A DNA stretch of 64,000 nt. Source: Pseudomonas sp. GM78 (lineage in GTDB: Bacteria > Pseudomonadota > Gammaproteobacteria > Pseudomonadales > Pseudomonadaceae). Both the position numbers and the translations under genes were made by a program. The stretch lies in the NCBI RefSeq assembly GCF_000282475.1, contig NZ_AKJF01000109.1, forward strand, positions 1 to 64,000, written 5' to 3'. Below, one piece after another: positions 38,484 to 60,255 of this stretch. Under the pieces are notes generated by a model. It saw nothing but the letters and a program-made list of their open reading frames with translations. It was not told the origin of the DNA and did not search any database. Within the stretch, counting starts at the first letter, position 1. Every line of letters starts with the position of its first letter.

Positions 38484-38506
38484 CATGAAGTCGCAAGGCA
38501 GTAGGG

Positions 38507-39361
38507 GTGCCGGAAAACGACGTGTTTGCCGCCGCGGATGCGGTGTTGGCCCGTGGGGAACGGCCAACGGTGGAACGTGTCCGCCTGGAACTGGGGCGCG
38601 GCAGTCCGGCGCGGGTCGGTGGCCTGCTCGATCAGTGGTGGGCACGCTTGGCCGAACGCCTGAGTGGCGAGATCCGCTTGCCGGCATTACCGAACGAGGT
38701 GTCACAAGCTTTTGTTGCGGTGTGGCAACAGGCAATCCTTCTCGCGCAAGGTGTCGCCGAACAGGCATTGGACAAACAACGACAGGTAGTCGCCGCAGAG
38801 CGTGAGCGGGTCGCTGCCGTCGAGGAGCAGGCGCGTCAGGATGCGGCGCAGTTTCGGCAGCAAACGGTGGAGGCAGTGGCGGGACGCCTAACCGTCGAGA
38901 CGCGACTGGCTGACCTCGAGTTGTTGCTGGCGCAGCGTCAGACTCAGATCGAGGACCTGCAGCAACAGCGTGAAGACCTGTTGCGCGAGCGCGGCGAGGC
39001 TCAGCAACAAAGTCAGACACTCCAGCAGGAAATGCAGGCGCTGCGGCTAAAGATGGAGCAGGAGCGCATCGCCCAGGAAAGCTACGTCCGTGGCGTCGAA
39101 AATCGCGCTTACCGCGAGGTCGATCACGCTAGGGAGGAGGGCAAAGCGATGATGATCCAACTCAAAGCCACCGGGCGGCAGGTCGAGCAGTTACAACGGC
39201 GGCTGGAGTCGACTCAAAACGAGCTCAGTCAATCTAGGCAATTGACTGCGGCACAGCAGGCCCGCGCCGAAGCCCTAGAACAACAATTGACGAAGGTGCG
39301 TCAGGTTCCCGCCGTCAAGCGTAAGCCCAAATCCCGAAAATCCGTAGTATCGACCGATTGA
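38507..39361 (+). CDS. KfrA-like DNA-binding coiled-coil protein
   Basis: This 284-residue protein has the KfrA N-terminal DNA-binding domain (DVFAAADAVLARGERPTVERVRLELGRGSPARVGGLLDQWW), which is a helix-turn-helix. A very long coiled coil of Gln, Glu, Arg and Ala heptads (roughly residues 85-270) follows, then a basic Lys-rich tail (KRKPKSRKS). Plasmid KfrA proteins bind DNA, self-associate through the coil and help partition, and chromosomal copies occur in integrated elements. The start is GTG 38507, because an in-frame TGA stands just upstream. No integrase or replication gene is adjacent. It is the first gene of the accessory region, upstream of the inverted-repeat cluster, and could organise or silence the island. 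Confidence 0.82.
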   Translation: MPENDVFAAADAVLARGERPTVERVRLELGRGSPARVGGLLDQWWARLAERLSGEIRLPALPNEVSQAFVAVWQQAILLAQGVAEQALDKQRQVVAAERERVAAVEEQARQDAAQFRQQTVEAVAGRLTVETRLADLELLLAQRQTQIEDLQQQREDLLRERGEAQQQSQTLQQEMQALRLKMEQERIAQESYVRGVENRAYREVDHAREEGKAMMIQLKATGRQVEQLQRRLESTQNELSQSRQLTAAQQARAEALEQQLTKVRQVPAVKRKPKSRKSVVSTD

Positions 39362-40199
39362 ATCCACAGCCATCAGCGGCCATTCCACACTCCGGCTTGC
39401 AGCCTGCGATCCCGATGCAGCAATCAGCTGAACTGAACCTGAGGTTCAGCTTCAGTCCATGAGCGACTGAATTGCCTTAACGGCCTCATTCCTTATTGGA
39501 TAGGCATACGGATTATGCCAGTTGAGCCGCACCGACTGGATCAAGCCATGATCGCCGCAGCCCGTTTTCCGCTTCGTAGCGATCCGGCGAAGAGCCAGTT
39601 CTGCGGCTAAGAGCCCTCGGAACCGGGGGCTGAGGGATGATCGGGGGTGAATCTAGGTGGTGACAGCAGGATTGACACAGCGATTATGGATTGACTATTG
39701 TTCATCTGCGCCTAGGCGTGAACCACAGGGTGGTTACAGGGATCTTCGGATCGCACCCCTCTTCTGATGAAAGTCAGATGGCCCAGTGCCAGGTAACAGC
39801 GTCCTGCCCCGTCGAACGCATGCAATCGACGGCTGAGAATCCCGCCTAAAGCGGGATTCGTCGTTTCTGGCCTTTCAACTACCCGGAAGTAAATATCGAA
39901 ATTTCTGGCATGTAAATATCCAAAACCGTGTAGCTCCTTCCGGTTTTGGATATTTACTTCCAACACGTCGCTGTGTGAAAACTGCATAAGCGTCCGGTAG
40001 CCGGACGCTTACGATCTTTCCAGTAATCCACGACCTTGAGGGCCATGCCAATTCTCCGGGGTGAGCTGCCGCTCGCTGGCGAAATCATCGAAGGATGGCG
40101 TGTCGATGAACCCTTCATGGGCGAAGGAAGACTGCACGCATAGGAGATCGGCCGACCATTTGAGTGGCGGCCACGATACCGGGCCGGCCCTCTGGATCC
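39362..40199. other. 838-bp gene-free stretch rich in palindromes
   Basis: I see no convincing gene between the KfrA-like protein and the nuclease half-gene. Its only notable content is the inverted-repeat cluster. A minus-strand 91-codon frame at 39712-39987 overlaps the longest palindrome and is probably chance. Confidence 0.5.
39433..40011. repeat. Cluster of five inverted repeats
   Basis: Five palindromic structures lie in under 600 bp without a gene: CTGAACCT-G-AGGTTCAG (39433-39449); a 9-bp near-perfect arm pair at 39612-39631; GAATCCCGC/GCGGGATTC (39837-39859); a perfect 17-bp pair, GTAAATATCCAAAACCG and inverse (39912-39928, 39941-39957), wrapped by the outer pair GGAAGTAAATATC/GATATTTACTTCC (39885-39897, 39949-39961); and an 11-bp stem, TAAGCGTCCGG/CCGGACGCTTA (39987-40011). 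Terminators, a structured RNA, or protein-binding sites are all possible. Confidence 0.65.
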
Positions 40200-42509
40200 T
40201 CAGGCGTCCCGAAAGCTTCTCGGCGGTGTCGCGTCGATCCCGATCACTCGAATAAATCGCCTGCGATCCTGCCCTTCTAATTCAAGAGCCCGGGTCTGAA
40301 GCAATTTAATGAGCTCACTGAATGTCATTCGATCGGAACCTGTAGGGTAATGCCATTTTCGATCTTTCTCCTGCAGCACAATGACTAGGAAGCCTGTCGT
40401 TGCATTGCGGTTGCGCATGTACTGCCCCACCAACTGGTGCTCGAGTGCTTCCAAATACTGGGGCACGGTCCAGCGCATGGACATCTTGAGTTCGATGGAG
40501 GCGTAGTCTGAACCTTTCCGACAAAGCACATCCCGTCGCGTGGCCTCTGCTGTCTCGGACTCCCGAGTGACGGTATAACGAGCCCCCGCGAGGTGATTCA
40601 TTTCACTCCCAAGCAAGGCCTGAAAATCGGCTTCCAACGCGAGGCCTTCCTTGTCGGTACTGATGCGAGAAAAGTTCACGGCGCTGAAGAACCGACGAAG
40701 ACTGAACTCACCTTTTTCAATGCTGTACTTCACGGCCAGAAGGTCTTCCTGGACCGCCAGCGCCAGCGAAAGTGTGCCGGCGACTGGCTGCCTGAAGTCG
40801 TCATCGAACTTGTCAAAATCCCGTTGCAATACTGGCGAACGACTGAAGCGTGCTTCCTGCATGTCGAATAAAACACTGCTCAGGTACTGTACTTGCTCGT
40901 CGCCCGCAACCTTGCGAATTGCCTCAAGGGCTTCATAGGCTCTTGTCGACCCTGCTGCAGCAATGGCGGGTATGAGCGCATCACGCAGTTGCTCGGCAGC
41001 ATCCCGATTACCTGGCGTATACACACTTCCTTCAGGATGCTCGATGTCGTTCTCAGGTCGGACGATACCGAAGGTCCATCTATAAAGGGCGGCCAGTGTG
41101 TCAACCCCGTCGTCACTCTGTTTGGCGAGCCCGATCACTTTCGACCCATAGTCCTTTCCGAGGTAGGCCGCCAGTTCGAAAACAAAACTCTGTGCTTGGG
41201 GACGGGCGTCAACCAGCCACCGCTCAAGATGGGATTTGAAGGAATCTGGATGGGTAGTAAGCCAGAAAGCCCCCCACATGACACTTTGTGCCACTGTTTC
41301 CAGTAGAGCGGGCTGAATGACGCTCTCGCCTGATTCAGTAAGCATGGCCGTGCTGAATGTCGCCTGAAGTCGGCTCGACGCCTGCGCCTCAATCACGTCT
41401 TGAGTTGTTGTGCCAGGAACATTGCTTACCAGATTGAGGAGCGACTCGGTCGTGTGATTTCTGCACCGTGGCTGTTTAAGAAGAAAGGACCAGGCCGCCG
41501 GCGCCAACGCTGTCTGAATGCTCTCCGGTGCGTTTTTTAATTCAACAAGCAACTCTTCTGCGTGTTCGAAGGAGGTTGGCCCCCGATCCGCGCGCGCGAT
41601 CAGCTGCTGTAACTCGACAATCGCCACAGCCTGGTGTGCGTCGACCAATGGCCAGAACCATTTAGGAAATCCGTTGATTTCAAAGCAAGCGTATTGAATG
41701 GCCTGTCCTACCTGGCTCCCCGACAAGGTCGGCAAATCGGTGCCGTCGCGAAGCTCTTGGCATAGGCCCAGCAAGCCAGCCACGGTGATGTGGTACGTAG
41801 ACCTTGGTTCATCCTCCTTAAACATTGGCAGTTGATCGCGCCAAAGCGTGGACAGCCCGGCCTTGAATGCGGTTGCCAGGTCAGCGCCAGCGACCGCCGC
41901 CACGGGCTCGATGCTAACGTCGCTGTAGCGGGACGACGTGTTTGCCTGCAAAAGCCAGCTAACCAACCAGGCAATTGTCTGACGTCCAGAGCCGTCACGG
42001 ATCAGCTCAATCTCTTTGTGCAGGGTTGCCAGTGATGTGGCGTCCATGGTCAAGCGACTCTGTCGAATTTCCTTGGCCGTCGGCCGGGGCTTTTTGCCAG
42101 CCGTGGTGTTAGCTTGAGATTTCAGAATCGCGGACCGCAGCGGGTCTGACATGAGCGTCGTGGCGTCCTCCAAGGTGGGTTCACAGATAAAGCCAAAGCC
42201 AAAAATTGCTTGCATGAGCAATTCAGCATTTGGGACTGTTAGCTGTAGGATTTTCCGAAGGAGTTCCAAGCGTACCGCCGGGTTCTGGCCAAGCGCTGTG
42301 CGCAGAGCTGAAAAATCACTCGAACCATAAAAGCATTCGCGGAAAAACCGACGGATGATGAGGCAAAGGAGAACTACGCGGGCTTCATAGCGGATCCCTA
42401 AACGAGTGATAAGCGAGGCCAGTACATCGATCACAAAACTGATCCTACGATCGGAGAAGTCCGAATAGACTTTCTTTCGGGCGTCGGGCAGATGACGGTC
42501 CCGGACCAA
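40200..42509 (-). CDS. C-terminal part of split STAND-nuclease gene: PD-(D/E)XK nuclease half
   Basis: This 769-residue frame continues in phase from the NTPase frame just upstream, from which it is separated only by a TAG and eight sense codons. The body is helical and unfamiliar. The last 150 residues look like a PD-(D/E)XK nuclease: Glu in LALEADFQALLG, Asp660 in TRRDVLC, and Glu673-x-Lys675 in ASIELKM, then QLVGQYMR and TGFLVIVLQ in the helix-strand order of this fold. All the presumed catalytic residues are present. If translated on its own it would begin at the TTG at 42509 (VRDRHLP), which has no clear ribosome site. It is more likely the continuation of one roughly 1,407-codon protein interrupted by a nonsense codon or read through. 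An anti-phage role is inference from architecture and island context. Confidence 0.68.
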   Translation of the reverse strand: MVRDRHLPDARKKVYSDFSDRRISFVIDVLASLITRLGIRYEARVVLLCLIIRRFFRECFYGSSDFSALRTALGQNPAVRLELLRKILQLTVPNAELLMQAIFGFGFICEPTLEDATTLMSDPLRSAILKSQANTTAGKKPRPTAKEIRQSRLTMDATSLATLHKEIELIRDGSGRQTIAWLVSWLLQANTSSRYSDVSIEPVAAVAGADLATAFKAGLSTLWRDQLPMFKEDEPRSTYHITVAGLLGLCQELRDGTDLPTLSGSQVGQAIQYACFEINGFPKWFWPLVDAHQAVAIVELQQLIARADRGPTSFEHAEELLVELKNAPESIQTALAPAAWSFLLKQPRCRNHTTESLLNLVSNVPGTTTQDVIEAQASSRLQATFSTAMLTESGESVIQPALLETVAQSVMWGAFWLTTHPDSFKSHLERWLVDARPQAQSFVFELAAYLGKDYGSKVIGLAKQSDDGVDTLAALYRWTFGIVRPENDIEHPEGSVYTPGNRDAAEQLRDALIPAIAAAGSTRAYEALEAIRKVAGDEQVQYLSSVLFDMQEARFSRSPVLQRDFDKFDDDFRQPVAGTLSLALAVQEDLLAVKYSIEKGEFSLRRFFSAVNFSRISTDKEGLALEADFQALLGSEMNHLAGARYTVTRESETAEATRRDVLCRKGSDYASIELKMSMRWTVPQYLEALEHQLVGQYMRNRNATTGFLVIVLQEKDRKWHYPTGSDRMTFSELIKLLQTRALELEGQDRRRFIRVIGIDATPPRSFRDA

Positions 42510-42533
42510 GCGAATTACCAGCGAACGCGCCAG

Positions 42534-44423
42534 CTAATAGGCCTGCTGATCATCCGCAGCGTCGAGAACCGGACCAGTGATAGTGGAGGTCAGGCGGTAA
42601 GCTCCTTGACCCCGGTCAAACTGTCGTTCGACCAAGGTAACGATCTGGGCCACCGTCAGGTGCGACCAGGCCAGGCGGATAATCGAGGCGGAGATCAGGC
42701 TTTCATGTAGATCAGTTTCCTCCATCAGCGCGGTTGCGATGCCTTGAAGGTCCTCGTTGACGCCAAGGTCCAGCAGGTAATACAGGTCGAGGCCCTGTCG
42801 TTGTTTCATGAGCAGGGCGAGGTCACACTGACACGCCTTCAGCACCTGCTGGCGCAGAATGTCTGATTGGCTGTAGGTCGCAATATTGATCAGCGCACTT
42901 CGGGCGCGATGATTTGAACCATATTGCTCGAACAGCTCGCTGATCAATGGCAGGTTGCAGTCTGCGCCAACCTGCCAGTAGTTTTCGGGTGTGAGATCGT
43001 AATGTTTGCGCCCAAGGCGATCCCCTTGTGTGGCCACGAGTTGAATACTTCGCCTGATCGCCTCGTGGGCATCAGCCATAGGGATGTCCCGGTTACGTAA
43101 GTCACCAAAAAAGGCGACCACTTGCGGGTCGCGCGGCAAAAGTTCTGCCCGGCAGTAGGCGCTCAACGTCGCCAGCCAACCCAAAATCGGCAGCAGCCGA
43201 CGCTGTACGCCACGCTCACCAGTAGGGGCGTCCCAGGAAAACGCATCGACCAGGCGTTTGGCATCTTCGGGTGATTGAACCCGCGAGGCGAAATGTTGCG
43301 CGGCAAGAAATGGAACAAGTTCCTCAGGGTAGAGCTTGACCTGGTGGTGGCCAGCATCAATGAATAGTTGCGATGTCAGCAATTGCTGCAAGCCCGACTC
43401 GGAGAGTTGGGTACCCGCAATCAGTCGCGCGGAAAGCACAGCGTCATCCACGCCGAACTGTTCCGAGGGCATCTCGATGTTTATCCGCTGACAAACCATT
43501 GAGGCTGCCGCAATTCTGCTTACAACCGCCACCTGTGCAGAGGGAGTGCCAGCAGTTGAAAGGCGATCGTCGCGTCCTTGTTGGAGTTCGACAGCCTGGA
43601 CCACCCCCTTGTAGACGTCCGTTAGACACTCTGGTTGGCGGTTTGCCAGATCGAGGTGGGCAAGGATCGCAAGTCCGCCAGGGCTCTTCGTGAACCCAGG
43701 CAGGCCCTTGTTGTGGGCTACCTCGAGGAGTGTGGCTGCATCATCAACCCCTTGTACACGCTGTAGGTAGGTTTTGGCTTGGGTTGAGGTTAGCGAAGCA
43801 AGGGAGAAAATGGACAAGGCGGCCTGGCTGCTGCTTAGACGGGTGGTTATGGCCTTGTTCGCTTCATCATCAAACAGCCCTCCCAAGTCGGCCTCCTCCT
43901 TGGAGGTGACCTCAAGGGGAACATCCAGAATCTCTGAGAGCTGGCTCAAAACATCCTGAGAGAGTACGGCCGGGCGTGTAGAGATGATCCACTGGGTGTT
44001 ACTGTTTGGCCATTGAACCGCCTTGAGGACCTTCTTCAGGGCATGATGCAGGTCGGCCCGCTGCTTGGGCGAAGCCTCATCCAAGGAATCGATGAACAGG
44101 GTGACTGGCGCATCAGGAACCTGCTGCCAGGCCTCGAAGGCATCGACCTCAGACGGGATCAGTGAGTCCTCAAAGGCACCCCGGTCAAGCACTTTGCGCA
44201 GTTCGATAAACACCGCGTATTTCCCCGCCGCGCGTTCACTCTTTGCCTGCTCTTTGAGTTCAGTGGTTTTCCCGAAGTTAGCCGGCGCGACGATAATCGC
44301 ATAACGGCTTGCCAGAACCTCACCCCATGACAATTTACGACCGTTGAGGTCTGACCGCAGTAACTCCTCCTGGTCGTATTTCCTCCGTTGGACGAAGCGT
44401 CGGTCTAGATTGAGGTACGGCAT
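42534..44423 (-). CDS. N-terminal part of split STAND-nuclease gene: NACHT-like NTPase half
   Basis: This 629-residue frame encodes a P-loop NTPase. Walker A is APANFGKTT (residues 46-54), Walker B with the NACHT-style tail is VTLFIDSLDEAS (about 107-118), and the sensor-like strand is WIISTRP near 150. A helical region follows, with no signal peptide or membrane segment. ATG 44423 has GGAG ten bases upstream; GTG 44438 also lies in frame. It ends at TAG 42536-42534 in the context GCCTATTAGCTG. The next codons stay open for 2.3 kb into the nuclease frame, so the stop looks like a lesion or a control point in one gene. STAND NTPases with nuclease domains are typical sensors and effectors of phage defence. 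Here the nuclease is C-terminal. Confidence 0.72.
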   Translation of the reverse strand: MPYLNLDRRFVQRRKYDQEELLRSDLNGRKLSWGEVLASRYAIIVAPANFGKTTELKEQAKSERAAGKYAVFIELRKVLDRGAFEDSLIPSEVDAFEAWQQVPDAPVTLFIDSLDEASPKQRADLHHALKKVLKAVQWPNSNTQWIISTRPAVLSQDVLSQLSEILDVPLEVTSKEEADLGGLFDDEANKAITTRLSSSQAALSIFSLASLTSTQAKTYLQRVQGVDDAATLLEVAHNKGLPGFTKSPGGLAILAHLDLANRQPECLTDVYKGVVQAVELQQGRDDRLSTAGTPSAQVAVVSRIAAASMVCQRINIEMPSEQFGVDDAVLSARLIAGTQLSESGLQQLLTSQLFIDAGHHQVKLYPEELVPFLAAQHFASRVQSPEDAKRLVDAFSWDAPTGERGVQRRLLPILGWLATLSAYCRAELLPRDPQVVAFFGDLRNRDIPMADAHEAIRRSIQLVATQGDRLGRKHYDLTPENYWQVGADCNLPLISELFEQYGSNHRARSALINIATYSQSDILRQQVLKACQCDLALLMKQRQGLDLYYLLDLGVNEDLQGIATALMEETDLHESLISASIIRLAWSHLTVAQIVTLVERQFDRGQGAYRLTSTITGPVLDAADDQQAY

Positions 44424-44792
44424 AGGCAGGCGCTCCACGAAAACGGTGCGATACGTTAACCTCCAGGGCCCGGAGTTGAAAGCTCGCGATCAGAGGCTTG
44501 CTTGATATGAAACTACACTTGCAAGCCTGCGGGGGCACTCCATGATATGCGTGTGATGCTCAGGTTTGCGCCGAAACGGGCCGGCACGGTGATGTAAAGC
44601 GGCATGGGGTCCGATGTTCGGGCTCGGCAAGAAAGGTTGATTAGCCGTGGATGACGCCGGCCCCTCATCCACGGCCGCTTCCACAACGCATATTGGCGCA
44701 TCGATAAGTAGGTCTTGCGGTCGCTTGCCACCAAGGTGGCTGTTCACTGATTGCAGCAATCCGCCAGAAGTGTGGGTTGGGGGAGAGGTGCA
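44424..44792. other. Gap without recognisable gene
   Basis: This stretch lies between the NTPase start and the end of the MFS fragment. I see no gene. It should hold the promoter of the NTPase-nuclease gene. Confidence 0.45.
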
Positions 44793-45702
44793 TCAGTCAA
44801 TCCGGCGTTGCCACAGTGCAAATATCGCGGCCCCTGTCGACAGGATCGCTATGAACTGAAACCCATCGAGATAACTCATGAAGATAGATTGGTCGGCAAC
44901 CAGCTTCAAGATCTGCGAAAGCGCCAAATCATGGGCAGCCGATAGACTTTGGCCCGCCTGCTCGAAGTGATGGGTCAACTTCTCCATCGCGTGACCAAAT
45001 ACTGGATTGTTGGCGCTGACATTTGTCGACAGGTTGGTCTGATGAATAGCCACGCGATGTTGTTCGAAGACGATGATCGTGGCTGTCGAAAACGAGTAGG
45101 CCATTTGCTTGACGATATTTTTGATGCGATAGCTGTGGGGGTACAGCTCCATTGCGAAGCTCTGAAAGGCGATATTGGCCACCGGCAAGGCAACAAACAT
45201 CAGCAGCAGACCGCGCAGGGTCAGAGGCAGCAATAGCCAGGAAGTACTGGCATACGGCGGCATGCTTGCCATCCATCCGCCGATAAAAGCGGTAAGCAGA
45301 AAACCTGGGACGAAGATCCATTTCTTGTGGCTGACAAGACCGGCGTAACGGAAATAGATCAGGGCTCCGCCGAGAGATGCGAGGGACGTCATACCCACCA
45401 GGTGTCCCGCATTTTCCACGGGATATCCAAGCCCTCCTTGCAGGAATCGGGAGATCAGGTACCCGAGGGCGTTGTTGATAAAATAATAAAGTGCATACAG
45501 CATCAAGCCGGTGCGAAAGGTCGCCTCTTTCAATCCGTGAAAACGCAACAACGGTCGCGGATGATTCCACTGCTGCCATACGAATACGCCGAGCAACAAT
45601 AGGCCGCATGCGGTAAGCCCCTCCAGCAGGGGGGAATCGCTGAATTGGGCAAAGTTCAGTTGCTGCACCACGACTTGCAAGGCCCCGAGTGCCAATGCCG
45701 CT
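44793..45702 (-). pseudogene. C-terminal remnant of DHA2-type MFS drug transporter
   Basis: About 300 residues of a 14-helix EmrB-like transporter remain, beginning around ALALGALQVVV (helix 7 region) and ending SYLDGFQFIAILSTGAAIFALWQRRID. Membrane helices such as GLTACGLLLLGVFVW and TLRGLLLMFVALPVANIAF are intact. The N-terminal half and promoter are missing. At 45702 the sequence switches abruptly into a copy of the nearby GGDEF gene, so the gene was cut by recombination rather than by point mutation. It is unlikely to be functional. Confidence 0.75.
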
Positions 45703-45781
45703 ACGATTCGACCGGGCACTACTTCGGCGATCAGGTGCTGATCGAGGTGGCGCAGCGTATGACCCAGCAGGTTCGTCCCGG
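45703..45781 (+). repeat. 79-bp direct copy of GGDEF gene segment (copy A)
   Basis: Bases 45703-45781 are identical to 48795-48873 inside the GGDEF-EAL gene, in the same orientation. They encode STGHYFGDQVLIEVAQ... up to RPG of the c-di-GMP I-site. It is fused on the left to the MFS remnant and on the right to a 42-bp repeat. Confidence 0.9.
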
Positions 45782-45822
45782 CGCTGTCTTGCTGGCGAAT
45801 GATGGGGATCTAATCGCGAGCC
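45781..45822 (+). repeat. 42-bp repeat (copy 1)
   Basis: Bases 45781-45822 are identical to 47082-47123 and contain CTTGCTGGCGAATGAT, similar to a REP core. Copy 1 lies exactly at the seam between the GGDEF fragment and the tail fragment that follows. Confidence 0.88.
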
Positions 45823-46230
45823 TCGCCAGAACCGCACACCCTGCGACTTCTACAGGCGATCAGTGACAACATAGAGCATGCACCTCCGCCCAGTGAACCG
45901 TACGTTGTTGAGCGTTTGGGAGACCTACTTCCTCGCCATGCGGTTCTTGTGGCTCGAATTGCTACTCAACTTATTCAGCTGTGGCGAGACCGTCTTACAA
46001 ATGTGGGATCTGCGCTCGTCTTTGCAGGAAGAGAAATCATGGACCTTGCAATCACGCTCCACCGAACGGAAGGAACAAAGCTTGAAGGTTTGCAGATGTT
46101 CGAGCAGCTTATCGAGATGGATGCCTATCAGGCTCGCGAAGTTCTGAACGAACTTGATCATCGTGTCAAATTGGGTGCCAATCCGCTGCGTCCTCGCTTG
46201 CCACGTAGAGTACGTCGAGGCGCTGCTTGA
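45823..46230 (+). pseudogene. C-terminal fragment of a large unknown (possibly defence ATPase) protein
   Basis: The plus-strand frame from the 42-bp repeat reads SPEPHTLRLLQAISDNIEHA, then PSEPYVVERLGDLLPRHAVLVARIA, IMDLAITLHRTEGTKLEGLQMFEQLIEMDAYQAREVLNELDHR and a basic tail, ending with TGA at 46228. A helical tail of this kind resembles the ends of large ATP-binding proteins in bacterial defence islands, but I recognise it only by pattern and cannot confirm it. There is no start codon or upstream part, so it is a 3' remnant joined at the repeat. Confidence 0.45.
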
Positions 46231-46540
46231 ATGATCTGACTATCGAACTGCCAATCACCTGGTACGAAGCCGATTTCGCCCGGTGTCTCAATAGATCGCC
46301 CCCACGTTGTGGCAGTCATTCTTGAACGTGATGTCCAGTATCGCCGTGAGCAGGGGCGGGATGCCGTTTTGCTTTCGGGTGTCGGGATCCAGAAGGGGTG
46401 GATTCGACAAAGCAGCCACTTCACTTATAGGATCTTCTGCCGCCCCGCCCGTGATCCGCACCCGCTTCCCACAACTGCCTCTCGCCAAAGGACTGTCGAC
46501 TTCGTTCCCATTCGTGGTTACCGCATCTATAAAGATTTCA

Positions 46541-46883
46541 CCCAGGGCCGTTGAGCAGATAATCACTGGCTGCCAGGTAGGTGCCACCCTCCGCGTAGCG
46601 GGACGCTTCCCAATCCAGATAATACTGAGCCTGCAATGCAAGGTTGCTGTTGAGGTCTATCTGGGTCGAGATTTGTGACAGCGGCAGATAGAGCTCCTTG
46701 GCCTCAGTACCAGGGTTGGCCTGCGCTTTTGCCAGGTCCATGGGGCCCTGGGAGTAGGCAATGCCGTTGGTAGCATTAAAAAGCGACTCACCCCAATAGA
46801 CGTTATGGCGGCCCGCTTTAACGCTCACAGTGATCTCGCCGGCATTGAATTGGTAAAACGCGAAAGCGTCGAGCAGTTCTCCG
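46541..46883 (-). pseudogene. Internal fragment of a DUF1302 gene
   Basis: The minus strand reads ELLDAFAFYQFNAGEITVSVKAGRHNVYWGESLFNATNG, then AKAQANPGTEAKELYLPLSQ and YYLDWEASRYAEGGTYLAASD. This matches the middle of the DUF1302 protein encoded at 22043-23710 (LDAFVFGQFDVSD, WGEALLTGG, AKELYRPQPQIS, YFFDWER). Both ends are missing, and the right edge abuts a ThiF-like fragment. It is not identical to the intact gene, so it came from another paralogue. Confidence 0.72.
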
Positions 46884-47081
46884 CGACTGAGCTTCCGAGG
46901 GAGCCTGCACCTATCAATAGATCTCTACGCCCGCACATCTCGTTCTCGGCAGCCCCCCTCGTTCGTAGTTGGTCGGAGGCCCAGTTGGCTGTTCGCTGCC
47001 ACTTCAAGGGTTCCTTGGACGTAGCAATCTCAGCATCCCAGTAGCGATGGTTGCGCTCGCAGGACCTGAAACCCTTTCGCC
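46884..47081 (-). pseudogene. Fragment of a ThiF/E1-like enzyme
   Basis: A minus-strand frame reads RNHRYWDAEIATSKEPLKWQ, ANWASDQLRTRGAAENEM, then RRDLLIGAGSLGSSVAE. A GxGxxG loop after a strand in this context is the start of an E1/ThiF adenylation domain, as found in ubiquitin-like conjugation modules of some bacterial defence operons. It stops at the seam with the DUF1302 fragment near 46883 and starts at the 42-bp repeat near 47082. Only about 65 residues remain. Assignment rests on a short motif. Confidence 0.42.
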
Positions 47082-47123
47082 GCGCTGTCTTGCTGGCGAA
47101 TGATGGGGATCTAATCGCGAGCC
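47082..47123 (+). repeat. 42-bp repeat (copy 2)
   Basis: This is identical to 45781-45822 and in the same orientation. It borders the ThiF-like fragment, so each copy marks a gene-fragment seam. Confidence 0.88.
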
Positions 47124-47440
47124 AATGCCCCCGGGATGGTGCTAACCCGACCATTCCGCGATCGGGAACCCGAGAAGTAATACCCAGGGAGGGGCTCACC
47201 GAAGACTTCGCCTATACAAGTGGGCCATGTCATATGTTCATAGGCAGGCCGTTACTATGTTCTGCGGCACGTCCGAAGGCTATTGGCATGGAAATGTTCA
47301 TCGGTCCAAGTTCATGGAAACCGGGCAGCAGCCTGCGAACTGTGCGGCTCAGCAGAACATCGAAACGGCCGTACACCCCAACCATTCACCCGTGCCCGAG
47401 TCACTTGGATTTGTGCGTCGGGCACAACGTGATCCTGTAG
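47124..47440. other. Debris without recognisable gene
   Basis: I see no assignable gene between the second 42-bp repeat and the luciferase-like tail; short frames on both strands match nothing I recognise. Confidence 0.45.
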
Positions 47441-47530
47441 TTTCTCGAAAGCCTGCGGGCGGTCGGTGTCAACCATGTGGGTTTGAATTTCCAGTACAGC
47501 GAACGCGATGCTGTACAGGAGGTGGAGAAT
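47441..47530 (+). pseudogene. C-terminal remnant of luciferase-like monooxygenase
   Basis: The frame FLESLRAVGVNHVGLNFQ followed by YSERDAVQEVEN resembles the end of an LLM-class flavin oxidoreductase, in which LREAGVNHVALN precedes the last helix. A TAG stands immediately before it and the upstream part is absent. It runs in frame into the long frame of the GGDEF gene, which makes that gene look artificially longer. Confidence 0.4.
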
Positions 47531-47737
47531 TGGTCGAGAAATTGCCGCGAGTCGAGAAAGCGAAGTCAGGCAAACGGCGGCCATCTGATACTGTTTTTTA
47601 TGTTGGATCTGAGCCTTTTTTTGGTTAGTCAGTGCTCTATAGAGTGCGCGTCCGACGCACTAGCGGACAGTGATCGGCCGCCCACTTTTTCAGGCTCTCT
47701 GAAGACCGGACGACCTCGAGAGTCTTCAGGAATCACC

Positions 47738-49978
47738 GTGAATACTCGTCCCAGCTTTCACAGCAAGGCACTCCCCGAGTCTCAACGTGACATTCTCGGC
47801 ATGATCGCGACCGACCATCATCTGAGCGAAATACTCAGCGCCATCTGCCAGATGCTTGACGATCAGGCCCCCGAAACCTTCTGCTCTATCCTGCTCACAG
47901 ATGCCGAGGGCAAACGCTTGCTGAGCGGCGCGGCGCCCAGCCTGCCGGTGGAATACAGCGAGGCGATTCATGGCATGGCCATTGGTCCACACGAAGGAAC
48001 CTGCGGCACCGCAGCGTTCCGGCGCGAACTGGTGGTCACCGAAGACATCGCCCGGGATCCGAACTGGGAGCGTTTCCGCAGCCTGGCGCTGGGGCATAAC
48101 CTGCGTTCCTGCTGGTCGGTGCCGTTGCTCTCCCATCAAGGAAACGTGTTGGGCACATTTGCCCTGTACCAGAACCGCGCCCATGCGCCGGACGAGGCGC
48201 AGATTCAACGGCTGGCCTGCGCAGCACAACTGGCAGTCATCGCGATCCGCCATGAGCGTGACGGCCAACGTCTGGAGGAAAGCGAGCAACGTTTTCGTTC
48301 GTTGTTCACCTACAACCCCCACCCTGTGTTCGCTCTCGATCTAGGCGGCAACATCCAGAGTGTGAATCCAGCAGGCCTGAAGCTGAAACCGCACACCGCA
48401 ACCGATTTCATTGGTCATCACTTTTCCCATCTGGTGCTTGAAGAAGACCTGCAACGGGTCAGTCAGCATTTTTCCGCAGCCCGCGCCGGAGAGCCTCAGC
48501 GCTTCGAGGCGCGGGTTCGCGACGAGAGTGAAAAGCTGTTGACCATGGACATCTCTAACCTGCCGATCATGGTCAACGGAGAGATCGTCGGGGTATTTGG
48601 CATTGCCCGGGACATCAGCGAGCAAAAGCATTTCGAGCGCCAATTGAGCTTCAACGCCAGCCATGACCGTCTGACCGGTTTGCTCAACCGTGTCTCGCTT
48701 GAAGACCGGCTTGTTCTGGATTGTCACATCAGTCGTCGGCGTAAGCGTCGTCTGGCGGTGATGTGCATAGATCTGGATGGATTCAAATCCATCAACGATT
48801 CGACCGGGCACTACTTCGGCGATCAGGTGCTGATCGAGGTGGCGCAGCGTATGACCCAGCAGGTTCGTCCCGGGGATACCATCGTGCGCATGGGCGGTGA
48901 CGAATTTATCGTGCTATTGCCGGACCTGCTTCGTGATGAGGACGTTGTACCGGTGGCCGAGCGCTTGATGGCCAGCATTGCCAGACCCTACTGTGTCCAG
49001 GGCATTGACTTGCACGTGAGTGCCAGTATCGGCATCACCCTGAGCGATGGTCACATCGAGCAGCCGATGCAGCTGATCCAGCAGGCTGACATGGCCATGT
49101 ACAAAGCCAAGCAGCAAGGGCGCAACAACTTTCAGTGGTACACCAGCGATCTTAATCAGCGCGTTTGTGAGCACGCGAGCCTGCGCAATGACCTGCAAAA
49201 GGCTATCGAAACTCAATCGTTACAGCTGCATTATCAACCGCAGATAGACGCGCGCACGGGGCGGGTGGTCGGGATCGAAGCGTTGCTGCGCTGGGAGCAT
49301 CCGGAAAAAGGATTCATCTCTCCGGCGGTGTTTGTGCCAGTGGCAGAGGACAGTGGTCAGATCATCCCGCTAAGCCTTTGGGTTCTTGATACGGCTTGCG
49401 CGCAGTTGCGCCAGCTAGGCGAGCAGGGCATCACCGGCATCTCAATGGCCGTGAATATTTCGCCGATGCATTTTCAGCGTGGCCATTTCGTCCAGTGTAT
49501 CCAGGCTACCCTGGACAAACATGGTCTGCTGGGTGAGCAGTTGGAGCTGGAGATCACCGAGTCGCTTCTGCTGCATAACGCTGAACAGGCGATCGACACG
49601 TTGCACCGGCTCAAGGCGTTGGGGGTGCGCATTGCTCTCGATGATTTCGGCACCGGTTTTTCCAGCCTCAGCTATCTCAAGCGTTTGCCCATCGACAAGA
49701 TCAAGATTGACCGCTCGTTCATCCAGGAAATCGCCACCGACCATCACGATGCAGCGATCACCCAAGGCATCATTTCCATGGCCCATCACCTCAGCCTGAC
49801 GGTGGTCGCCGAAGGCGTGGAAACGGCTGCCCAGGTGGATTTTCTGGAGGTCAGTCGCTGCGATATTTTTCAGGGGTATTACTTTGCCAAACCGATGCCC
49901 TTTGCAGAAATCGAAGCGTTCCTGAGCCATCCTGTTTCCCTCTCCCTGACCGGCAATTGTGTCGGGTCCCAGACCTGA
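47738..49978 (+). CDS. GAF-PAS-GGDEF-EAL cyclic-di-GMP protein
   Basis: This 746-residue dual-domain protein may both make and break c-di-GMP. A GAF domain (about 25-165; IHGMAIGPHEGTCGTAAFRRE) and a PAS domain (FRSLFTYNPHPVFALDLGGNIQSV) precede the catalytic part. The GGDEF motif (residues 386-390) is intact, with an RPGD inhibitory I-site five residues earlier. EALLRW (514-519) and DDFGTGFSSLSYL with KIKIDRSF show a complete EAL domain. I place the start at GTG 47738 (VNTRPSFHSK), preceded by CAGGAAT; the longer frame from 47477 would include a luciferase-like remnant. Bases 48795-48873 are duplicated at 45703. It borders the debris region and is monocistronic. Confidence 0.9.
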   Translation: MNTRPSFHSKALPESQRDILGMIATDHHLSEILSAICQMLDDQAPETFCSILLTDAEGKRLLSGAAPSLPVEYSEAIHGMAIGPHEGTCGTAAFRRELVVTEDIARDPNWERFRSLALGHNLRSCWSVPLLSHQGNVLGTFALYQNRAHAPDEAQIQRLACAAQLAVIAIRHERDGQRLEESEQRFRSLFTYNPHPVFALDLGGNIQSVNPAGLKLKPHTATDFIGHHFSHLVLEEDLQRVSQHFSAARAGEPQRFEARVRDESEKLLTMDISNLPIMVNGEIVGVFGIARDISEQKHFERQLSFNASHDRLTGLLNRVSLEDRLVLDCHISRRRKRRLAVMCIDLDGFKSINDSTGHYFGDQVLIEVAQRMTQQVRPGDTIVRMGGDEFIVLLPDLLRDEDVVPVAERLMASIARPYCVQGIDLHVSASIGITLSDGHIEQPMQLIQQADMAMYKAKQQGRNNFQWYTSDLNQRVCEHASLRNDLQKAIETQSLQLHYQPQIDARTGRVVGIEALLRWEHPEKGFISPAVFVPVAEDSGQIIPLSLWVLDTACAQLRQLGEQGITGISMAVNISPMHFQRGHFVQCIQATLDKHGLLGEQLELEITESLLLHNAEQAIDTLHRLKALGVRIALDDFGTGFSSLSYLKRLPIDKIKIDRSFIQEIATDHHDAAITQGIISMAHHLSLTVVAEGVETAAQVDFLEVSRCDIFQGYYFAKPMPFAEIEAFLSHPVSLSLTGNCVGSQT
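48795..48873 (+). repeat. 79-bp direct copy of GGDEF gene segment (copy B, in gene)
   Basis: This is the in-gene copy of the repeat also at 45703-45781, ending within the RPGD I-site codons just before GGDEF. The two copies are 3,092 bp apart. Confidence 0.9.
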
Positions 49979-50090
49979 AAATCAGACGCTAAGGCAAATT
50001 TTCAGACCCCAGCGCAGAACTCCCTCTCCCCAGGCAAGGCGCTCCATGCGCCTTTCTCACACACTCGGCTCTAACGCTATCGCGCTGCAA

Positions 50091-50098
50091 AACAACAA
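50091..50098 (+). promoter_or_regulatory. Hfq/Crc CA motif before coxL-like gene
   Basis: AACAACAA, an exact AAnAAnAA match, lies 13 nt before the ATG at 50111, in place of a strong Shine-Dalgarno. Confidence 0.55.
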
Positions 50099-50110
50099 GA
50101 GCCGCGAAAA

Positions 50111-53110
50111 ATGACTAGTTTCCAACCTGCTACCGAAAGCCAGACCGGCCACATCGGCGCCCGTCAGACCCGTGTCGAGGACGCCGCATTGTTGCGCGGC
50201 CTTGGCTGCTATGCCGATGACGCTGCGATCCCGCCGGGTACGCTACACGCGGCGATCATCCGTTCACCCCACGCTCATGCGCGGATCACCTCGGTGGACT
50301 TTTCCAAAGCGCTGCTGATGAAAGGCGTGCACGGCGTACTGGTCGGCGAAGACGTCAAACGCTGGGCGCTACCGTTCCCGGTGGGGGTGCGGCAGCCCAT
50401 GGAGCACTGGTGCGTCGCCGTCGACAAGGTGCGTTACGTCGGAGAGCCTGTGGCCGTGGTGATCGCCGAGAGCCGCTATCTGGCCGAGGACGCCATCGAA
50501 GGTGTGCGCGTTGAATACGTGCCGCTGCCCCCGATCATCGACCCCGAACTGGCCACCGCCGAACAGGCGCCGATCCTGCACGAAGCCGTCGGCAGCAACG
50601 TGGTCAACGAACGGCGCTTTCGTTATGGCGAGCCGGAGCAGGCTTTCGAGCAGGCGCCGCACAAGGTCTCGCTCAAAGTGAAATTTCCGCGCAGTTCCTG
50701 CACACCCATTGAATGCTATGTGGTGCTGGCTCAGTACGAGCGCGCCACCGGCATTTATGACGTGTTGGCCAATTTCCAGGGTCCCTACGCGTTGCACACG
50801 GTCATGGCCCGTGCACTGAATGTGCCCGGCAACCGCTTGCGTTTGCGCACACCGAAAGATTCCGGCGGCAGCTTTGGCATCAAGCAAGGGGTTTTCCCTT
50901 ACGTGGTGATGATGGGCCTGGCGTCACGCAAGGTCGGCGCACCGGTAAAGTGGGTCGAGGACCGTCTGGAACATTTGCAGGGGGCTTCTTCGGCGACCAA
51001 TCGGGTGACCGAAATTGAAGCGGCGGTGGAAGCGGATGGCCGCATCACCGCTTTGCGTTATGACCAGATCGACGATTGTGGTGCCTACCTGAGAGCGCCT
51101 GAACCGGCGACGTTCTACCGCATGCACGGCAACCTGACGGGCGCCTACGCGATCCGCAATTTGCAAGTGCGCAACCGAGTGGTGCTGACCAACAAAACCC
51201 CATCCGGCCTGAACCGTGGTTTCGGTGGCCCGCAGGTGTATTTCGCCCTGGAGCGGCTGCTGCAACACATTGCCGTGCAATTGAACCTTGATCCGTTGGA
51301 CGTGATCCGCCGCAACCTGGTGCCGGCCGATGCCTTCCCTTATCGCGCGGCCGCCGGTGCGTTGCTCGATTCCGGCAATTACCAGGCAGGCATTGCCTTG
51401 GCGGCGGCTGACGGTGGACTCGACGAGTTGCTCAAACGTCGTGATCAGGCCCGTGCCGAAGGCCGGATCTATGGCATTGGCTATGCCGCTGTCATCGAGC
51501 CTTCGATTTCCAACATGGGTTACATCACCACCGCGATGACGCCCGAAGAGCGGCGCAAGGCCGGTCCGAAAAACGGCGCTGTCGCAACCGCCACCATCAA
51601 CGTCGGCCCGTTGGGTGACGTCAGTGTGCACGTGTCCTCGGCGCCGCAAGGGCAGGGCCATCAAACCACCGTCGCTCAGGTCGTCGCCGAAGTGCTAGGC
51701 GTCGCGCTGGAATCCATCGTGGTCAACGTCGAGCTGGATACCCAGAAGGACGCCTGGTCGATTGCCTCTGGCAACTATTCCAGCCGCTTCGCGGGCGCTG
51801 TGGCCGGTGCCGTCTATAAGGCCGCGCTGAAGATCCGCGATCGCCTCGCCGCGATTGCCGCCGAGCAATTGCAGGCCAGTCCCGAAGATATTCGTTTCGC
51901 CGGTGGCAAGATTTTTGTGGTCAATGGCGGGGCGGTGGCGCCATTCCATCGGATTGCTGGTGCGACCCACTGGTCGCCGGGCTTGCTGCCGGAAGGTGAA
52001 AGTGGCGGACTGCGCGAAACCGCCTTCTGGAGCCCGCCGCAATTGGTGGCCCCGGACGACCAGGATCAGGTCAACAGCTCGCTGTGCTACGGCTTTGTCT
52101 TCGACATCTGTGGTCTGGAAATCGACCGCATGACCGGCGAGATCCACATTGATCGCTACGTCACCTGCCATGACGCCGGCCGCCTGCTCAACCCGGCGCT
52201 GGTCGATGGCCAGATTCGTGGTGGCTTCACCCAAGGCCTCGGCGCGGCGCTGATGGAAGAGTTCGCCTATGGCGAGGACGGCAGTTTCCTCTCCGGGACC
52301 TTCGCCGATTATCTGGTGCCGACCGCACCGGAAGTGATCGAACCGGTGATCCTGCACATGGAAACGCCATCGCCATTCACCCCACTGGGCGCCAAGGGTG
52401 TGGGCGAGGGCAACAATATGAGCACGCCGGTGTGCATCGCCAACGCGGTGGCCGACGCCCTTGGCCGCTCGGACATCCGTCTGCCACTGACGCCATCGAA
52501 AGTACGCACGCTCATCGGGATCGACGAGCCGCCACGGCCCGCCGGTATGGAGCCCGATGAAAACCTGGACGCGGCAGCTGCCGGTGGACCGGCACTGCGG
52601 GCCAACGACTCGGTGGTGATTCCTGCTGCGCCGCAACAGGTCTTCGATACCTTGCTCGACCCGCAGACGCTGGCGGCAATCATTCCCGGTTGCCACGACC
52701 TCGTGCTTGAAGGCGAAAACCGTTACCGCGCAGACGTCACCGTCGGCGTCGGCATGATCCGTGCGCGCTTCGAGGCCAAGGTTGCCCTGAGTGATCTGGA
52801 CCCGCCGCATTCATTGCGTCTGTCCGGTTCCGGCAGCAGCTCGATGGGTTCGGCCCAGGGTCAGGCCAAGGTTCGTTTCGTCCAACTGGAAAATGGCCAC
52901 ACACGTCTGGAATACCAATACCAGGTGGCGGTCAGCGGCAAAGTCGCTGCGGTCGGCGGCCGAATGTTGCAAGGGGCCTCGAAAGTGATCATCGGACAAA
53001 TCTTTACTCGCCTGTCGCAACGGGTCAGCGGCCAAGCCATCTCCACCGGCTGGTGGGCGCGACTGCGGGCCTCGCTTGGCGCGCTGTTTGGCAAGGGAGG
53101 TGCGCAATGA
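50111..53110 (+). CDS. Molybdenum hydroxylase large subunit fused to CoxG-like domain
   Basis: This 999-residue protein is the molybdopterin-cytosine-dinucleotide catalytic subunit of a xanthine-oxidase-family hydroxylase. GARQTRVEDAALLRGLGCYADD opens the family N-terminus. QGQGHQTTVAQVVAE and GAKGVGEGNNMSTP (containing the catalytic Glu) are intact. The CO-dehydrogenase signature loops (AYxCSFR or AYRGAGR) are absent and that region reads SGLNRGFGGPQ, so it is not a CO dehydrogenase. From about residue 840, a CoxG/SRPBCC domain follows (VFDTLLDPQTLAAIIPGCHDL, LSGSGSSSMGSAQGQA), normally a separate assembly protein. It overlaps the next gene (ATGA). The likely reaction is hydroxylation of an aromatic or N-heteroaromatic carbon. 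Confidence 0.9.
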   Translation: MTSFQPATESQTGHIGARQTRVEDAALLRGLGCYADDAAIPPGTLHAAIIRSPHAHARITSVDFSKALLMKGVHGVLVGEDVKRWALPFPVGVRQPMEHWCVAVDKVRYVGEPVAVVIAESRYLAEDAIEGVRVEYVPLPPIIDPELATAEQAPILHEAVGSNVVNERRFRYGEPEQAFEQAPHKVSLKVKFPRSSCTPIECYVVLAQYERATGIYDVLANFQGPYALHTVMARALNVPGNRLRLRTPKDSGGSFGIKQGVFPYVVMMGLASRKVGAPVKWVEDRLEHLQGASSATNRVTEIEAAVEADGRITALRYDQIDDCGAYLRAPEPATFYRMHGNLTGAYAIRNLQVRNRVVLTNKTPSGLNRGFGGPQVYFALERLLQHIAVQLNLDPLDVIRRNLVPADAFPYRAAAGALLDSGNYQAGIALAAADGGLDELLKRRDQARAEGRIYGIGYAAVIEPSISNMGYITTAMTPEERRKAGPKNGAVATATINVGPLGDVSVHVSSAPQGQGHQTTVAQVVAEVLGVALESIVVNVELDTQKDAWSIASGNYSSRFAGAVAGAVYKAALKIRDRLAAIAAEQLQASPEDIRFAGGKIFVVNGGAVAPFHRIAGATHWSPGLLPEGESGGLRETAFWSPPQLVAPDDQDQVNSSLCYGFVFDICGLEIDRMTGEIHIDRYVTCHDAGRLLNPALVDGQIRGGFTQGLGAALMEEFAYGEDGSFLSGTFADYLVPTAPEVIEPVILHMETPSPFTPLGAKGVGEGNNMSTPVCIANAVADALGRSDIRLPLTPSKVRTLIGIDEPPRPAGMEPDENLDAAAAGGPALRANDSVVIPAAPQQVFDTLLDPQTLAAIIPGCHDLVLEGENRYRADVTVGVGMIRARFEAKVALSDLDPPHSLRLSGSGSSSMGSAQGQAKVRFVQLENGHTRLEYQYQVAVSGKVAAVGGRMLQGASKVIIGQIFTRLSQRVSGQAISTGWWARLRASLGALFGKGGAQ

Positions 53111-53913
53111 AACCGGCTGCTTTCGATTACGTTCGGGCTGACACCCGTCGTCAGGTGGTTGAGTTGCTCGCCGAGTACGGCCAGGACGCTCGCATCATTG
53201 CCGGTGGCCAGTCGCTGATGGCGGTGCTGAACATGCGCCTGGCTCAACCCAAGTTGCTGATCGATATCAATCATGTGGCTGAGCTGACCTATATCGAACT
53301 GCGCAAGGATTGCCTGGCGGTAGGCGCTGGGGTACGCCAGGCGCAGCTGCTGGCGCGTTCGACCCTGATGGACGAGGTTCCTCTGTTGGCACTGGCGATG
53401 CCCTGGATCGGTCACTTCCAGACGCGCAATCGCGGCACCGTCTGCGGTTCGGTGGCTCACGCCGACCCCAGCGCCGAGTTGCCGCTGTGCCTGGTGACGC
53501 TGGGCGGCGAGATCGTTCTCGAGTCGAAAAAAGGCAAGCGCATCGTCAAGGCTGCCGACTTCTTCCAAGGCATTCTCACCACCGACAAGCGTGCCGATGA
53601 ACTGGTCGTCGAGGTGCGTTTTCCGCTCAAGCGCGAAGGCATCACCTATCGCTTCCGCGAAATCGCCATGCGCCACGGCGACTTTGCCATTGTCTCCCTG
53701 GCCGCGGCCATCGGCGCGGACCAGGTCGAACTCGGCATCGGCGGGGTCGCCGACCGTCCGCAACGTCGCAGCCTGCCACGTGGTGCGGCGCTGCCGGACG
53801 CGCTCAATCAAACCGCCTGGTCGCTCGACGCTCAAGACGACGTGCAGGCCAGCGCTGCCTATCGCCGCCAACTGATTCGCGAGCTGGGTCATCAGCTGAT
53901 CGAAGGAGTCTGA
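53107..53913 (+). CDS. Molybdenum hydroxylase FAD-binding medium subunit (CoxM-like)
   Basis: This 268-residue FAD subunit carries the first flavin motif IIAGGQSLMAVLNMRLAQP and the second TRNRGTVCGSVAHADPSAELPL. It receives electrons from the iron-sulfur subunit. There is no inserted [4Fe-4S] loop of the kind found in 4-hydroxybenzoyl-CoA reductase, so that enzyme is unlikely. The start ATG 53107 overlaps the stop of the large subunit, so translation is coupled. Two base pairs separate its stop from the start of the small subunit. The gene order L-M-S follows the usual Cox/Xdh operon variants. Confidence 0.92.
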   Translation: MKPAAFDYVRADTRRQVVELLAEYGQDARIIAGGQSLMAVLNMRLAQPKLLIDINHVAELTYIELRKDCLAVGAGVRQAQLLARSTLMDEVPLLALAMPWIGHFQTRNRGTVCGSVAHADPSAELPLCLVTLGGEIVLESKKGKRIVKAADFFQGILTTDKRADELVVEVRFPLKREGITYRFREIAMRHGDFAIVSLAAAIGADQVELGIGGVADRPQRRSLPRGAALPDALNQTAWSLDAQDDVQASAAYRRQLIRELGHQLIEGV

Positions 53914-53915
53914 AC

Positions 53916-54416
53916 ATGCGTGTAACTGCCGACCAAACCTTTCCGATTCGCCTGGAACTCAATGGCCGCTCCCGCGAAGCGCTAGCCGAACCGCGGACCC
54001 AACTCTGCGACTTCCTGCGCCACGACCTCGGTGCCACCGGTGTCCATGTCGGATGCGAACACGGTGTCTGCGGTGCCTGCACGGTGCTGGTGGACGGAGT
54101 CGCCATGCGTTCCTGCCTGATGCTCGCAGTACAGGGACACGAGCGGCGTATCGAGACCGTCGAGTCCCTGGCCGACGACGACACTCTGAGCGACCTGCAA
54201 CAAGCCTTTCGCCGTCATCACGCCTTGCAGTGCGGCTTTTGCACTGCGGGCATTCTCATGTCCTGCGTGGATTTCCTGGAACGGGTACCCAACCCGGACG
54301 AGACCCAGGTACGCGACATGCTTTCGGGGCATCTATGTCGCTGCACGGGCTACACCGGCATCGTCCAGGCCGTGCTCGAAGTCGCTGCCCAGCGCCAAAC
54401 GAACAAAGGGGTATAA
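53916..54416 (+). CDS. Molybdenum hydroxylase 2Fe-2S small subunit (CoxS-like)
   Basis: This 166-residue protein contains two [2Fe-2S] clusters. The plant-ferredoxin-like motif CEHGVCGACTVLVDG supplies the first and CGFCTAGILMSC with LCRCTGYTGIV the second. It links the molybdenum site to the FAD subunit. ATG 53916 follows GAAGGAG inside the coxM end. It completes an intact three-subunit enzyme, and all cluster ligands are present. The CoA ligase gene begins 5 bp after the stop. Confidence 0.94.
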   Translation: MRVTADQTFPIRLELNGRSREALAEPRTQLCDFLRHDLGATGVHVGCEHGVCGACTVLVDGVAMRSCLMLAVQGHERRIETVESLADDDTLSDLQQAFRRHHALQCGFCTAGILMSCVDFLERVPNPDETQVRDMLSGHLCRCTGYTGIVQAVLEVAAQRQTNKGV

Positions 54417-54422
54417 CAATAA
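54415..54422 (+). promoter_or_regulatory. Hfq/Crc CA motif overlapping CoA-ligase start
   Basis: AACAATAA is an exact AAnAAnAA match whose last base is the A of the ATG at 54422, so bound Hfq would cover the start codon. Confidence 0.55.
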
Positions 54423-55960: not shown

Positions 55961-55979
55961 TCATCCAGAGGACACTCTC

Positions 55980-56783: not shown

Positions 56784-56884
56784 ATCGTACCGGCGAACAG
56801 GCCCGGGAGTATGTTGGTAACGGCGTACGCCTTACGGAGCAGGGCCTGCCGCTCCTTTTGATTCACCGCTTGTGTGAGGCAACC

Positions 56885-59015: not shown

Positions 59016-59105
59016 GTTGAATCAACGATTGAACAAGGTTGCTCGCAGGTTACCGTAAACGTAACCCTGCATGCAGCACCACGCTTTGCTTGAGGTACAG
59101 AAAAC

Positions 59106-60077: not shown

Positions 60078-60255
60078 GACGGTTTTTCCGACGAGTGTGG
60101 GGGCTGCGAAAGTCGAGGTAGACGCTCGGTCATTCGCGCGCGATAGTGGTTTGCTGAACCATAGAGCGATCGCCGGTGTTGAGAAATAGATAGACGCCCC
60201 GATGATATGCATTGAGGTCGATAACGATATCGCTTCATGCGAGCGGAGAAATCTG

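What the first reader, a model, noticed from the sequence alone, without database searches (positions are those of the whole stretch)
40200..44423. Candidate defence gene: N-terminal NACHT/STAND NTPase and C-terminal PD-(D/E)XK nuclease, split by one in-frame TAG
The two long minus-strand frames are in the same phase. ORF 1 ends ...DAADDQQAY-TAG; the next eight codons (LARSLVIR) and the TTG at 42509 are open, and the frame runs on for 769 codons. The joined protein would be about 1,407 codons with Walker A/B motifs at the start and D...E-x-K nuclease residues at the end, with no other lesion in 4.2 kb. Known STAND nuclease defence proteins mostly carry the nuclease at the N-terminus and a sensor at the C-terminus (family knowledge), so this order is unusual. 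I do not recognise a named system. The TAG may be a recent nonsense mutation, a readthrough site or a genuine split.
Basis: partly seen in the sequence, partly recalled or inferred. Interest (0 to 1): 0.87.

Follow-up and report, generated by a model that had tools for sequence, protein, structure and literature searches.

The report
Stop-interrupted bacterial anti-phage NACHT-nuclease gene
A Pseudomonas genome carries a large gene for an immune-receptor-like protein, probably an anti-phage defence, that is cut in two by one stop codon although close relatives have it whole; it belongs to an unnamed branch of a recently named protein family and is not a new kind of system.

Summary
Two minus-strand frames (44423-42534, 42533-40200) are one gene interrupted by a single TAG. 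Relatives carry it as one open frame: Pseudomonas sp. GM41(2012), 2 differences in 4,239 bases; GM49, 94% protein identity; G512, 39%. The other difference from GM41 is synonymous. So the stop is a recent lesion or a base error, not a genuine split.

Both halves match NCBIfam "antiphage HyoA", but the intact GM41 protein scores 484 bits against a cut-off of 1200 and sits in its own clade: a relative of HyoA, not HyoA. It has an N-terminal NACHT/STAND P-loop and a C-terminal PD-(D/E)XK-type motif, invariant in the 18 rows aligned. HyoA- and EruA-type proteins share this order, so it is not unique. Neighbours of HyoA-type relatives include Septu and Hachiman models.

The gene lies in a 39.3-kb block 99.97% identical to GM41, while two other GM41 samples match this genome at 77-92% over matches above 1 kb: recent exchange between species, or an assembly fault.

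The parts
40200..44423 (-). Interrupted HyoA-like gene (ATG 44423 to final stop; 1,407 codons counting the TAG)
   Evidence: Frames and stop. HyoA match of both halves. Intact relatives.
42534..42536 (-). In-frame TAG, codon 630 from the ATG
   Evidence: GM41, GM49 and G512 have a sense codon at the aligned place; one of the 11 block differences from GM41 falls in this codon.
44265..44288 (-). Walker A (P-loop), residues 46-53 from the ATG
   Evidence: G51 and K52 invariant in 21 of 21 rows, T/S at 53. Residue 46, a G in the classical motif (recalled), is A here.
44076..44099 (-). Walker B with D-x-x-D-E, residues 109-116
   Evidence: D112, D115, E116 invariant in 21 of 21 rows.
40203..40691 (-). 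C-terminal PD-(D/E)XK-type nuclease domain (E...E...D...E-x-K...QL...Y)
   Evidence: Eight residues invariant in 18 of 18 rows of A3, and again in the 19 rows of A5. L025 and L084, left out of these alignments, lack the domain.
38507..39361 (+). KfrA_N-type gene, convergent neighbour, whose first codons are cut by the left end of the shared block
   Evidence: Pfam KfrA_N 1.9e-20; junction; GM41 start.
38493..64000 (.). Part in the window of a 39.3-kb block (contig 38493-77818) almost identical to GM41(2012)
   Evidence: 11 differences in 39,326 bases, no gaps.

Best explanation
A probably inactivated copy of a single-gene STAND (NACHT) immune receptor related to HyoA and EruA. The intact protein would work so: the N-terminal NACHT ATPase, which starts after only about 45 residues and leaves no room for an N-terminal effector, holds the protein inactive; an infection signal read by the long middle part (roughly residues 400-1200) triggers nucleotide exchange and oligomerisation; this clusters and switches on the C-terminal PD-(D/E)XK nuclease, which cuts DNA and stops phage growth, probably at the cost of the cell. 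In the window copy one TAG at codon 630 removes much of the middle part and the whole nuclease, so it should be dead unless the stop is read through, is a base error, or the fragments work in trans. Shown by sequence: gene unity, motifs, intact relatives, kinship to HyoA/EruA, defence-type genes near relatives. Inferred: trigger, oligomerisation, nuclease activity and target, abortive outcome.
For: Single open frame in GM41, GM49 and G512, and 13 relatives in all with the whole protein in one frame. HyoA match of both halves and of intact GM41 at 8.2e-145. Invariant NTPase residues in 21 of 21 rows and nuclease residues in 18 of 18. Constraint on both halves between GM41 and GM49: dN/dS 0.032/0.163 (N) and 0.029/0.092 (C). 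PADLOC models for Septu, Hachiman, TIR and others among 76 genes beside 12 HyoA-type relatives. bNACHT25/32 need their DNase for defence (PMC12169576, passages seen).
Against: The window protein has no PADLOC match and no Pfam match above cut-off; the nuclease call rests on a motif, with no significant solved-structure match and no fold predicted. The best solved-structure matches of the N-terminal profile are general P-loop ATPases (0.00069), NACHT proteins only at 0.011 and above. The window neighbours tested are not defence genes, and one search had no random-gene control. L025 and L084 lack the nuclease, so it may be dispensable or exchangeable. HyoA/EruA are called antiphage by NCBI; I found no paper on them. 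Names and order of steps are partly recalled.
Confidence: 0.72

Rival explanations
1. The TAG is a base error or minority variant in a draft assembly of 235 contigs, and the strain has a working gene like that of GM41.
For: Only 2 differences from GM41 in the gene and 11 in 39.3 kb, so single errors weigh heavily; draft of 235 contigs.
Against: The rest of the block carries few differences and no gaps, so base quality looks good; nothing marks this base as doubtful. Reads were not available.
Confidence: 0.2
2. The stop is tolerated: readthrough, or a second start after the TAG, makes two fragments or a little full-length protein that still act.
For: Frame open for 777 codons after the TAG. An AGGA lies 8 bases before an in-frame GTG at 42434.
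Against: Relatives have no stop there, so no conserved recoding; the TTG at 42509 has no ribosome-binding-like sequence before it; a stop this recent leaves the frame open anyway. No suppressor tRNA search of the whole genome was done (the window has no tRNA).
Confidence: 0.06
3. The protein is a STAND NTPase with a nuclease that serves plasmid or mobile-element conflict or maintenance rather than phage defence.
For: It lies beside a KfrA-type gene in a block that looks exchanged; in GM41 that gene has neighbours that read like a recombinase and transposition genes (my reading). Relatives occur on 48 plasmid records.
Against: NCBI names HyoA and EruA antiphage; genes near HyoA-type relatives match phage-defence models.
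Confidence: 0.15
4. The contig is a chimera: the 39-kb block belongs to GM41 and was joined to this genome by assembly or sample mixing.
For: 99.97% identity across species; the KfrA-type gene is cut at the junction.
Against: Both block ends lie inside the contig; two other 20-kb GM41 samples have no near-identical long match in this genome. Three repeats at one end mirror those at the other. The TAG differs from GM41 in any case.
Confidence: 0.15

Closest known systems
HyoA, NACHT domain-containing antiphage protein (NCBIfam NF058534)
   Same: Length (1,407 against 1,430 positions), N-terminal NTPase, C-terminal nuclease motif, alignment over almost the whole model
   Different: 484 bits for intact GM41 against a cut-off of 1200; about 20% identity to HyoA-type rows; own clade with a long stem
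EruA, NACHT domain-containing antiphage protein (NCBIfam NF058535)
   Same: Same order of NTPase and C-terminal nuclease motif
   Different: Weak match of the N half only (51.3 bits), cut-off 1000; 22% identity between L032 and GM41; other side of the tree
bNACHT25/bNACHT32 and Avs (AVAST) STAND nucleases
   Same: STAND NTPase joined to a nuclease; same working principle proposed
   Different: bNACHT25/32 have an N-terminal PD-(D/E)XK DNase and STAND proteins are described with a C-terminal sensor (PMC12169576, passages seen); here the NTPase is first and the nuclease motif last. Avs layout is recalled.

Membership tests
HyoA (NF058534) | Score above NCBI's curated cut-off of 1200 bits | tested here: not met
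   Halves 190.9 and 296.3 bits; intact GM41 484.3 bits
HyoA (NF058534) | One protein aligned from start to end of the model | tested here: met
   Model 1-602 and 841-1429
HyoA (NF058534) | Anti-phage activity | not testable with these tools
   No experiment possible; the label is NCBI's
EruA (NF058535) | Score above the curated cut-off of 1000 bits | tested here: not met
   N half 51.3 bits, no match listed for the C half or for intact GM41 at E 0.01
STAND/NACHT NTPase | Walker A and Walker B (D-x-x-D-E) residues | tested here: met
   Invariant in 21 of 21 rows
STAND/NACHT NTPase | Pfam NACHT (PF05729) match | tested here: inconclusive
   None for the window protein; 6 of 21 rows at E 0.1 or better, best 1.3e-6
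PD-(D/E)XK nuclease | Conserved acidic residues and E-x-K | tested here: met
   Invariant in 18 of 18 rows
PD-(D/E)XK nuclease | PD-(D/E)XK fold | not testable with these tools
Avs / bNACHT25-type STAND nuclease | Nuclease N-terminal to the NTPase | tested here: not met
   P-loop at residue 46 from the ATG, nuclease motif in the last 150 residues or so

The most novel reading that the evidence does not exclude
GM41, GM49 and G512 define a third, unnamed clade of a permuted STAND-nuclease class (NTPase first, sensor in the middle, nuclease last), neither HyoA nor EruA, with its own trigger and carried in KfrA-linked mobile modules; the window copy is a natural knock-out that arose after a recent 39-kb exchange between species.
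Probability: 0.4. Interest if true: 0.52.

Novelty: new variant of a known kind. Interest (0 to 1): 0.36.

Why it matters
STAND immune receptors are usually described as effector first, sensor last. This protein and its two NCBI-named relatives carry a nuclease motif at the far end, so activation must be passed to the C-terminus; that can be tested with the intact GM41 gene. The window copy and its almost identical intact twin in another species would be a natural pair for asking when such a receptor is kept or lost.

Tried and rejected
Genuine two-gene split: rejected, because relatives are single frames. Chance alignment of two frames: rejected. Member of HyoA or EruA: rejected on curated cut-offs. 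Two-gene Eru system: considered because a gene of about 610 aa lies just upstream in L032, L033, L034, L035 and L038; only that of L032 was tested, an ILVD/EDD dehydratase. Phage-borne: 2 phage records match, at query residues 1288-1404 only; one viral-contig scan gave 149 pattern matches, none a relative. The gene itself on plasmids: no nucleotide match. Papers on HyoA/EruA as phage defence: none found in the searches. Searches returned nothing; the listings of 12, 32 and 87 looked unrelated by title and abstract start (one search showed 40 of 948); one paper, PMC13113432, was searched for 'Hyo' (none in its main text). PMC13092281 was searched for terms and its outline seen: no Hyo or Eru. 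Searches for NACHT/STAND defence with C-terminal effectors led to PMC12169576, of which I saw passages. Contig chimera: not favoured, not excluded (see rivals).

Failed or empty calls: 6 and 69 (wrong frames), 18, 29 and 35 (term format), 34 (paper not held). It showed that L038, L034 and L089, which were left out of the nuclease alignments, also match the nuclease profile, while L025 does not (and L084 gave no match).
Full report
What is there. The minus-strand frames 44438-42534 and 42533-40200 are one reading frame with a single TAG at 42536-42534. There is one stop in 1,412 codons of this frame and 34 to 68 in each of the other five. The likely start is the ATG at 44423 (GGAG 9 bases before it), giving 1,407 codons.

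One gene, not two. A scan of named genomes with the N half returned two loci, Pseudomonas sp. GM41(2012) (L010) and GM49 (L009). GM41 has the same 4,239 bases with 2 differences and an open frame of 1,412 codons; GM49 is 95.0% identical in DNA and 93.6% in protein and is also open. G512 (L031) is 39% identical over the whole length in one frame. Of the two GM41 differences one lies in the TAG codon and the other is synonymous. GM41, GM49 and G512 have a sense codon there, so the stop is derived. Between GM41 and GM49 dN and dS are 0.031 and 0.123; N half 0.032 and 0.163, C half 0.029 and 0.092, so both halves were constrained in those lineages.

Relatives. Of the loci examined, 13 carry the whole protein in one frame (L009, L010, L026-L029, L031, L078-L083). 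L025 and L084 end before the nuclease. L030, L037 and L085-L088 hold fragments or lie at contig ends; L085 is in several frames but broken at other places than the window gene. L032-L036, L038 and L039 are long single frames on the EruA side, and L089 is a more distant one.

What it is. NCBIfam gives HyoA (NF058534) for the N half (model 1-602, 2.8e-56) and the C half (841-1429, 4.4e-88). Intact GM41 scores 484.3 bits against a cut-off of 1200, while L029 scores 1534.7 and L025 1198.3. Searching 148 genomes of the family with this model gave 10 with a match at E 1e-20, own included, none over the cut-off, and 0 of 14 control genomes. A tree of 21 proteins (L034, L089 and fragments left out) puts GM41, GM49 and G512 in a clade of their own (100/100, stem 1.91 changes per column) beside a 12-row HyoA group, with six EruA-side rows opposite; the program warned of long branches, including the one to this clade, so the exact join is unsure. 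PADLOC gives no match; Pfam gives none above cut-off.

Anatomy. In A4 (21 rows) the G-K of Walker A, D..DE of Walker B and an arginine at 150 are invariant. Walker A begins at residue 46, so there is no room for an N-terminal effector. A profile of these rows finds a designed phosphate-loop protein (0.00069) and an IS ATPase (0.0025) first, and NLRP14 and NLRC4 at 0.011-0.014: a P-loop ATPase for sure, NACHT by kinship. In A3 (18 rows) E, E, D, E-x-K and QL...Y are invariant, in the order expected of a PD-(D/E)XK enzyme (recalled). A5 shows the same in 19 rows. Rows left out of A3: L025 and L084, which lack the domain; L034, L038 and L089, which have it by profile. No solved structure matches significantly (best 7esz, E 0.35, aligned over the same motif), and Pfam shows only weak hits.

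Function. I listed 136 genes beside 19 relatives and scanned the 76 beside 12 HyoA-type ones. Several match PADLOC models: PtuA/PtuB (Septu), HamA/HamB (Hachiman), TIR effectors, QatA, PifA and others (the first 25 of 123 families shown, one gene can match several, no random control). Housekeeping genes are among them too. The window neighbours tested are not defence genes; two CARF-model hits to the response regulator at 35076-36779 cover only its DNA-binding part. PMC12169576 (passages) describes bacterial NACHT proteins as N-terminal effector, central NACHT and C-terminal sensor, with DNase activity needed for defence by bNACHT25/32. Here the order is NACHT, long middle, nuclease; I propose the same logic with the output passed to the C-terminus.

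Distribution. N half: 7 of 398 genomes of the genus at E 1e-20, own included. Whole GM41 protein: 3 of 298 of the family at E 1e-30, own included. A1 profile: 13 of 369 of the class at E 1e-20, own included. Plasmids: 48 of 72,556 records, all under 60% identity and none covering 80% of the query. Phages: 2 of 50,697.

How it came here. Contig 38493-77818 is 99.972% identical to GM41 (11 differences, no gaps, 39,326 bases). Two other 20-kb samples of GM41 match this genome at 77-92% over matches longer than 1 kb, and window 8900-28700 matches GM41 at 70% in its best piece. The block therefore looks like a recent exchange between species, and the TAG arose, or was miscalled, after it; a chimeric contig is not excluded. 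GM49 shares 38494-44646 only (86% up to 40000, 95% beyond), with 437 extra bases at 40000: the KfrA-type gene plus this gene look like a unit. In GM41 the KfrA-type gene is next to a divergent frame that reads like a tyrosine recombinase, then frames that read like TniQ, TniB and TnsB (labels are my reading, PADLOC gave none). G264 keeps the KfrA-type gene (75%) but had no match to the N half.

Verdict. A real gene, a stop that is real in this assembly, a known kind of protein in an unnamed clade. Interest is moderate to low: the defence reading is plausible, but the family is named and this copy is probably dead.

Noticed in passing
window 38493-64000 (contig to 77818): 39.3-kb block 99.972% identical to Pseudomonas sp. 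GM41(2012), while two sampled GM41 stretches match this genome at 77-92% over matches above 1 kb.
   Followed up: partly
window 38389-38486 and contig 77945-78041 (L059 17946-18042): Three AGTTTCAAATT-type repeats (spacing 31, 53) at the left end of the block are mirrored at the right end (spacing 53, 31) in inverted orientation; the motif was not found within one mismatch in 80 kb around the GM41 copy. They look like transposon ends.
   Followed up: partly
L025:6303-12429: A HyoA-type protein without the C-terminal nuclease is followed by an overlapping gene with an AAA_21/AbiEii-type ATPase domain; no nuclease remnant downstream. Possibly an exchanged effector.
   Followed up: partly
L030:7488-8861: A frame in which a HyoA C-terminal piece runs on into the C-terminal part of nicotinate phosphoribosyltransferase: perhaps a remnant of an insertion into that gene.
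   Followed up: no
L032:4743-6587 and similar positions in L033, L034, L035, L038: EruA-type genes often lie directly downstream of a gene of about 610 aa; the one tested (L032) is an ILVD/EDD-type dehydratase, suggesting a shared insertion site.
   Followed up: partly
contig 73057-75819 (L059:13058-15820): The right part of the block holds a 920-aa Clp-type ATPase that reads like ClpG/ClpK (my reading, no family search).
   Followed up: no
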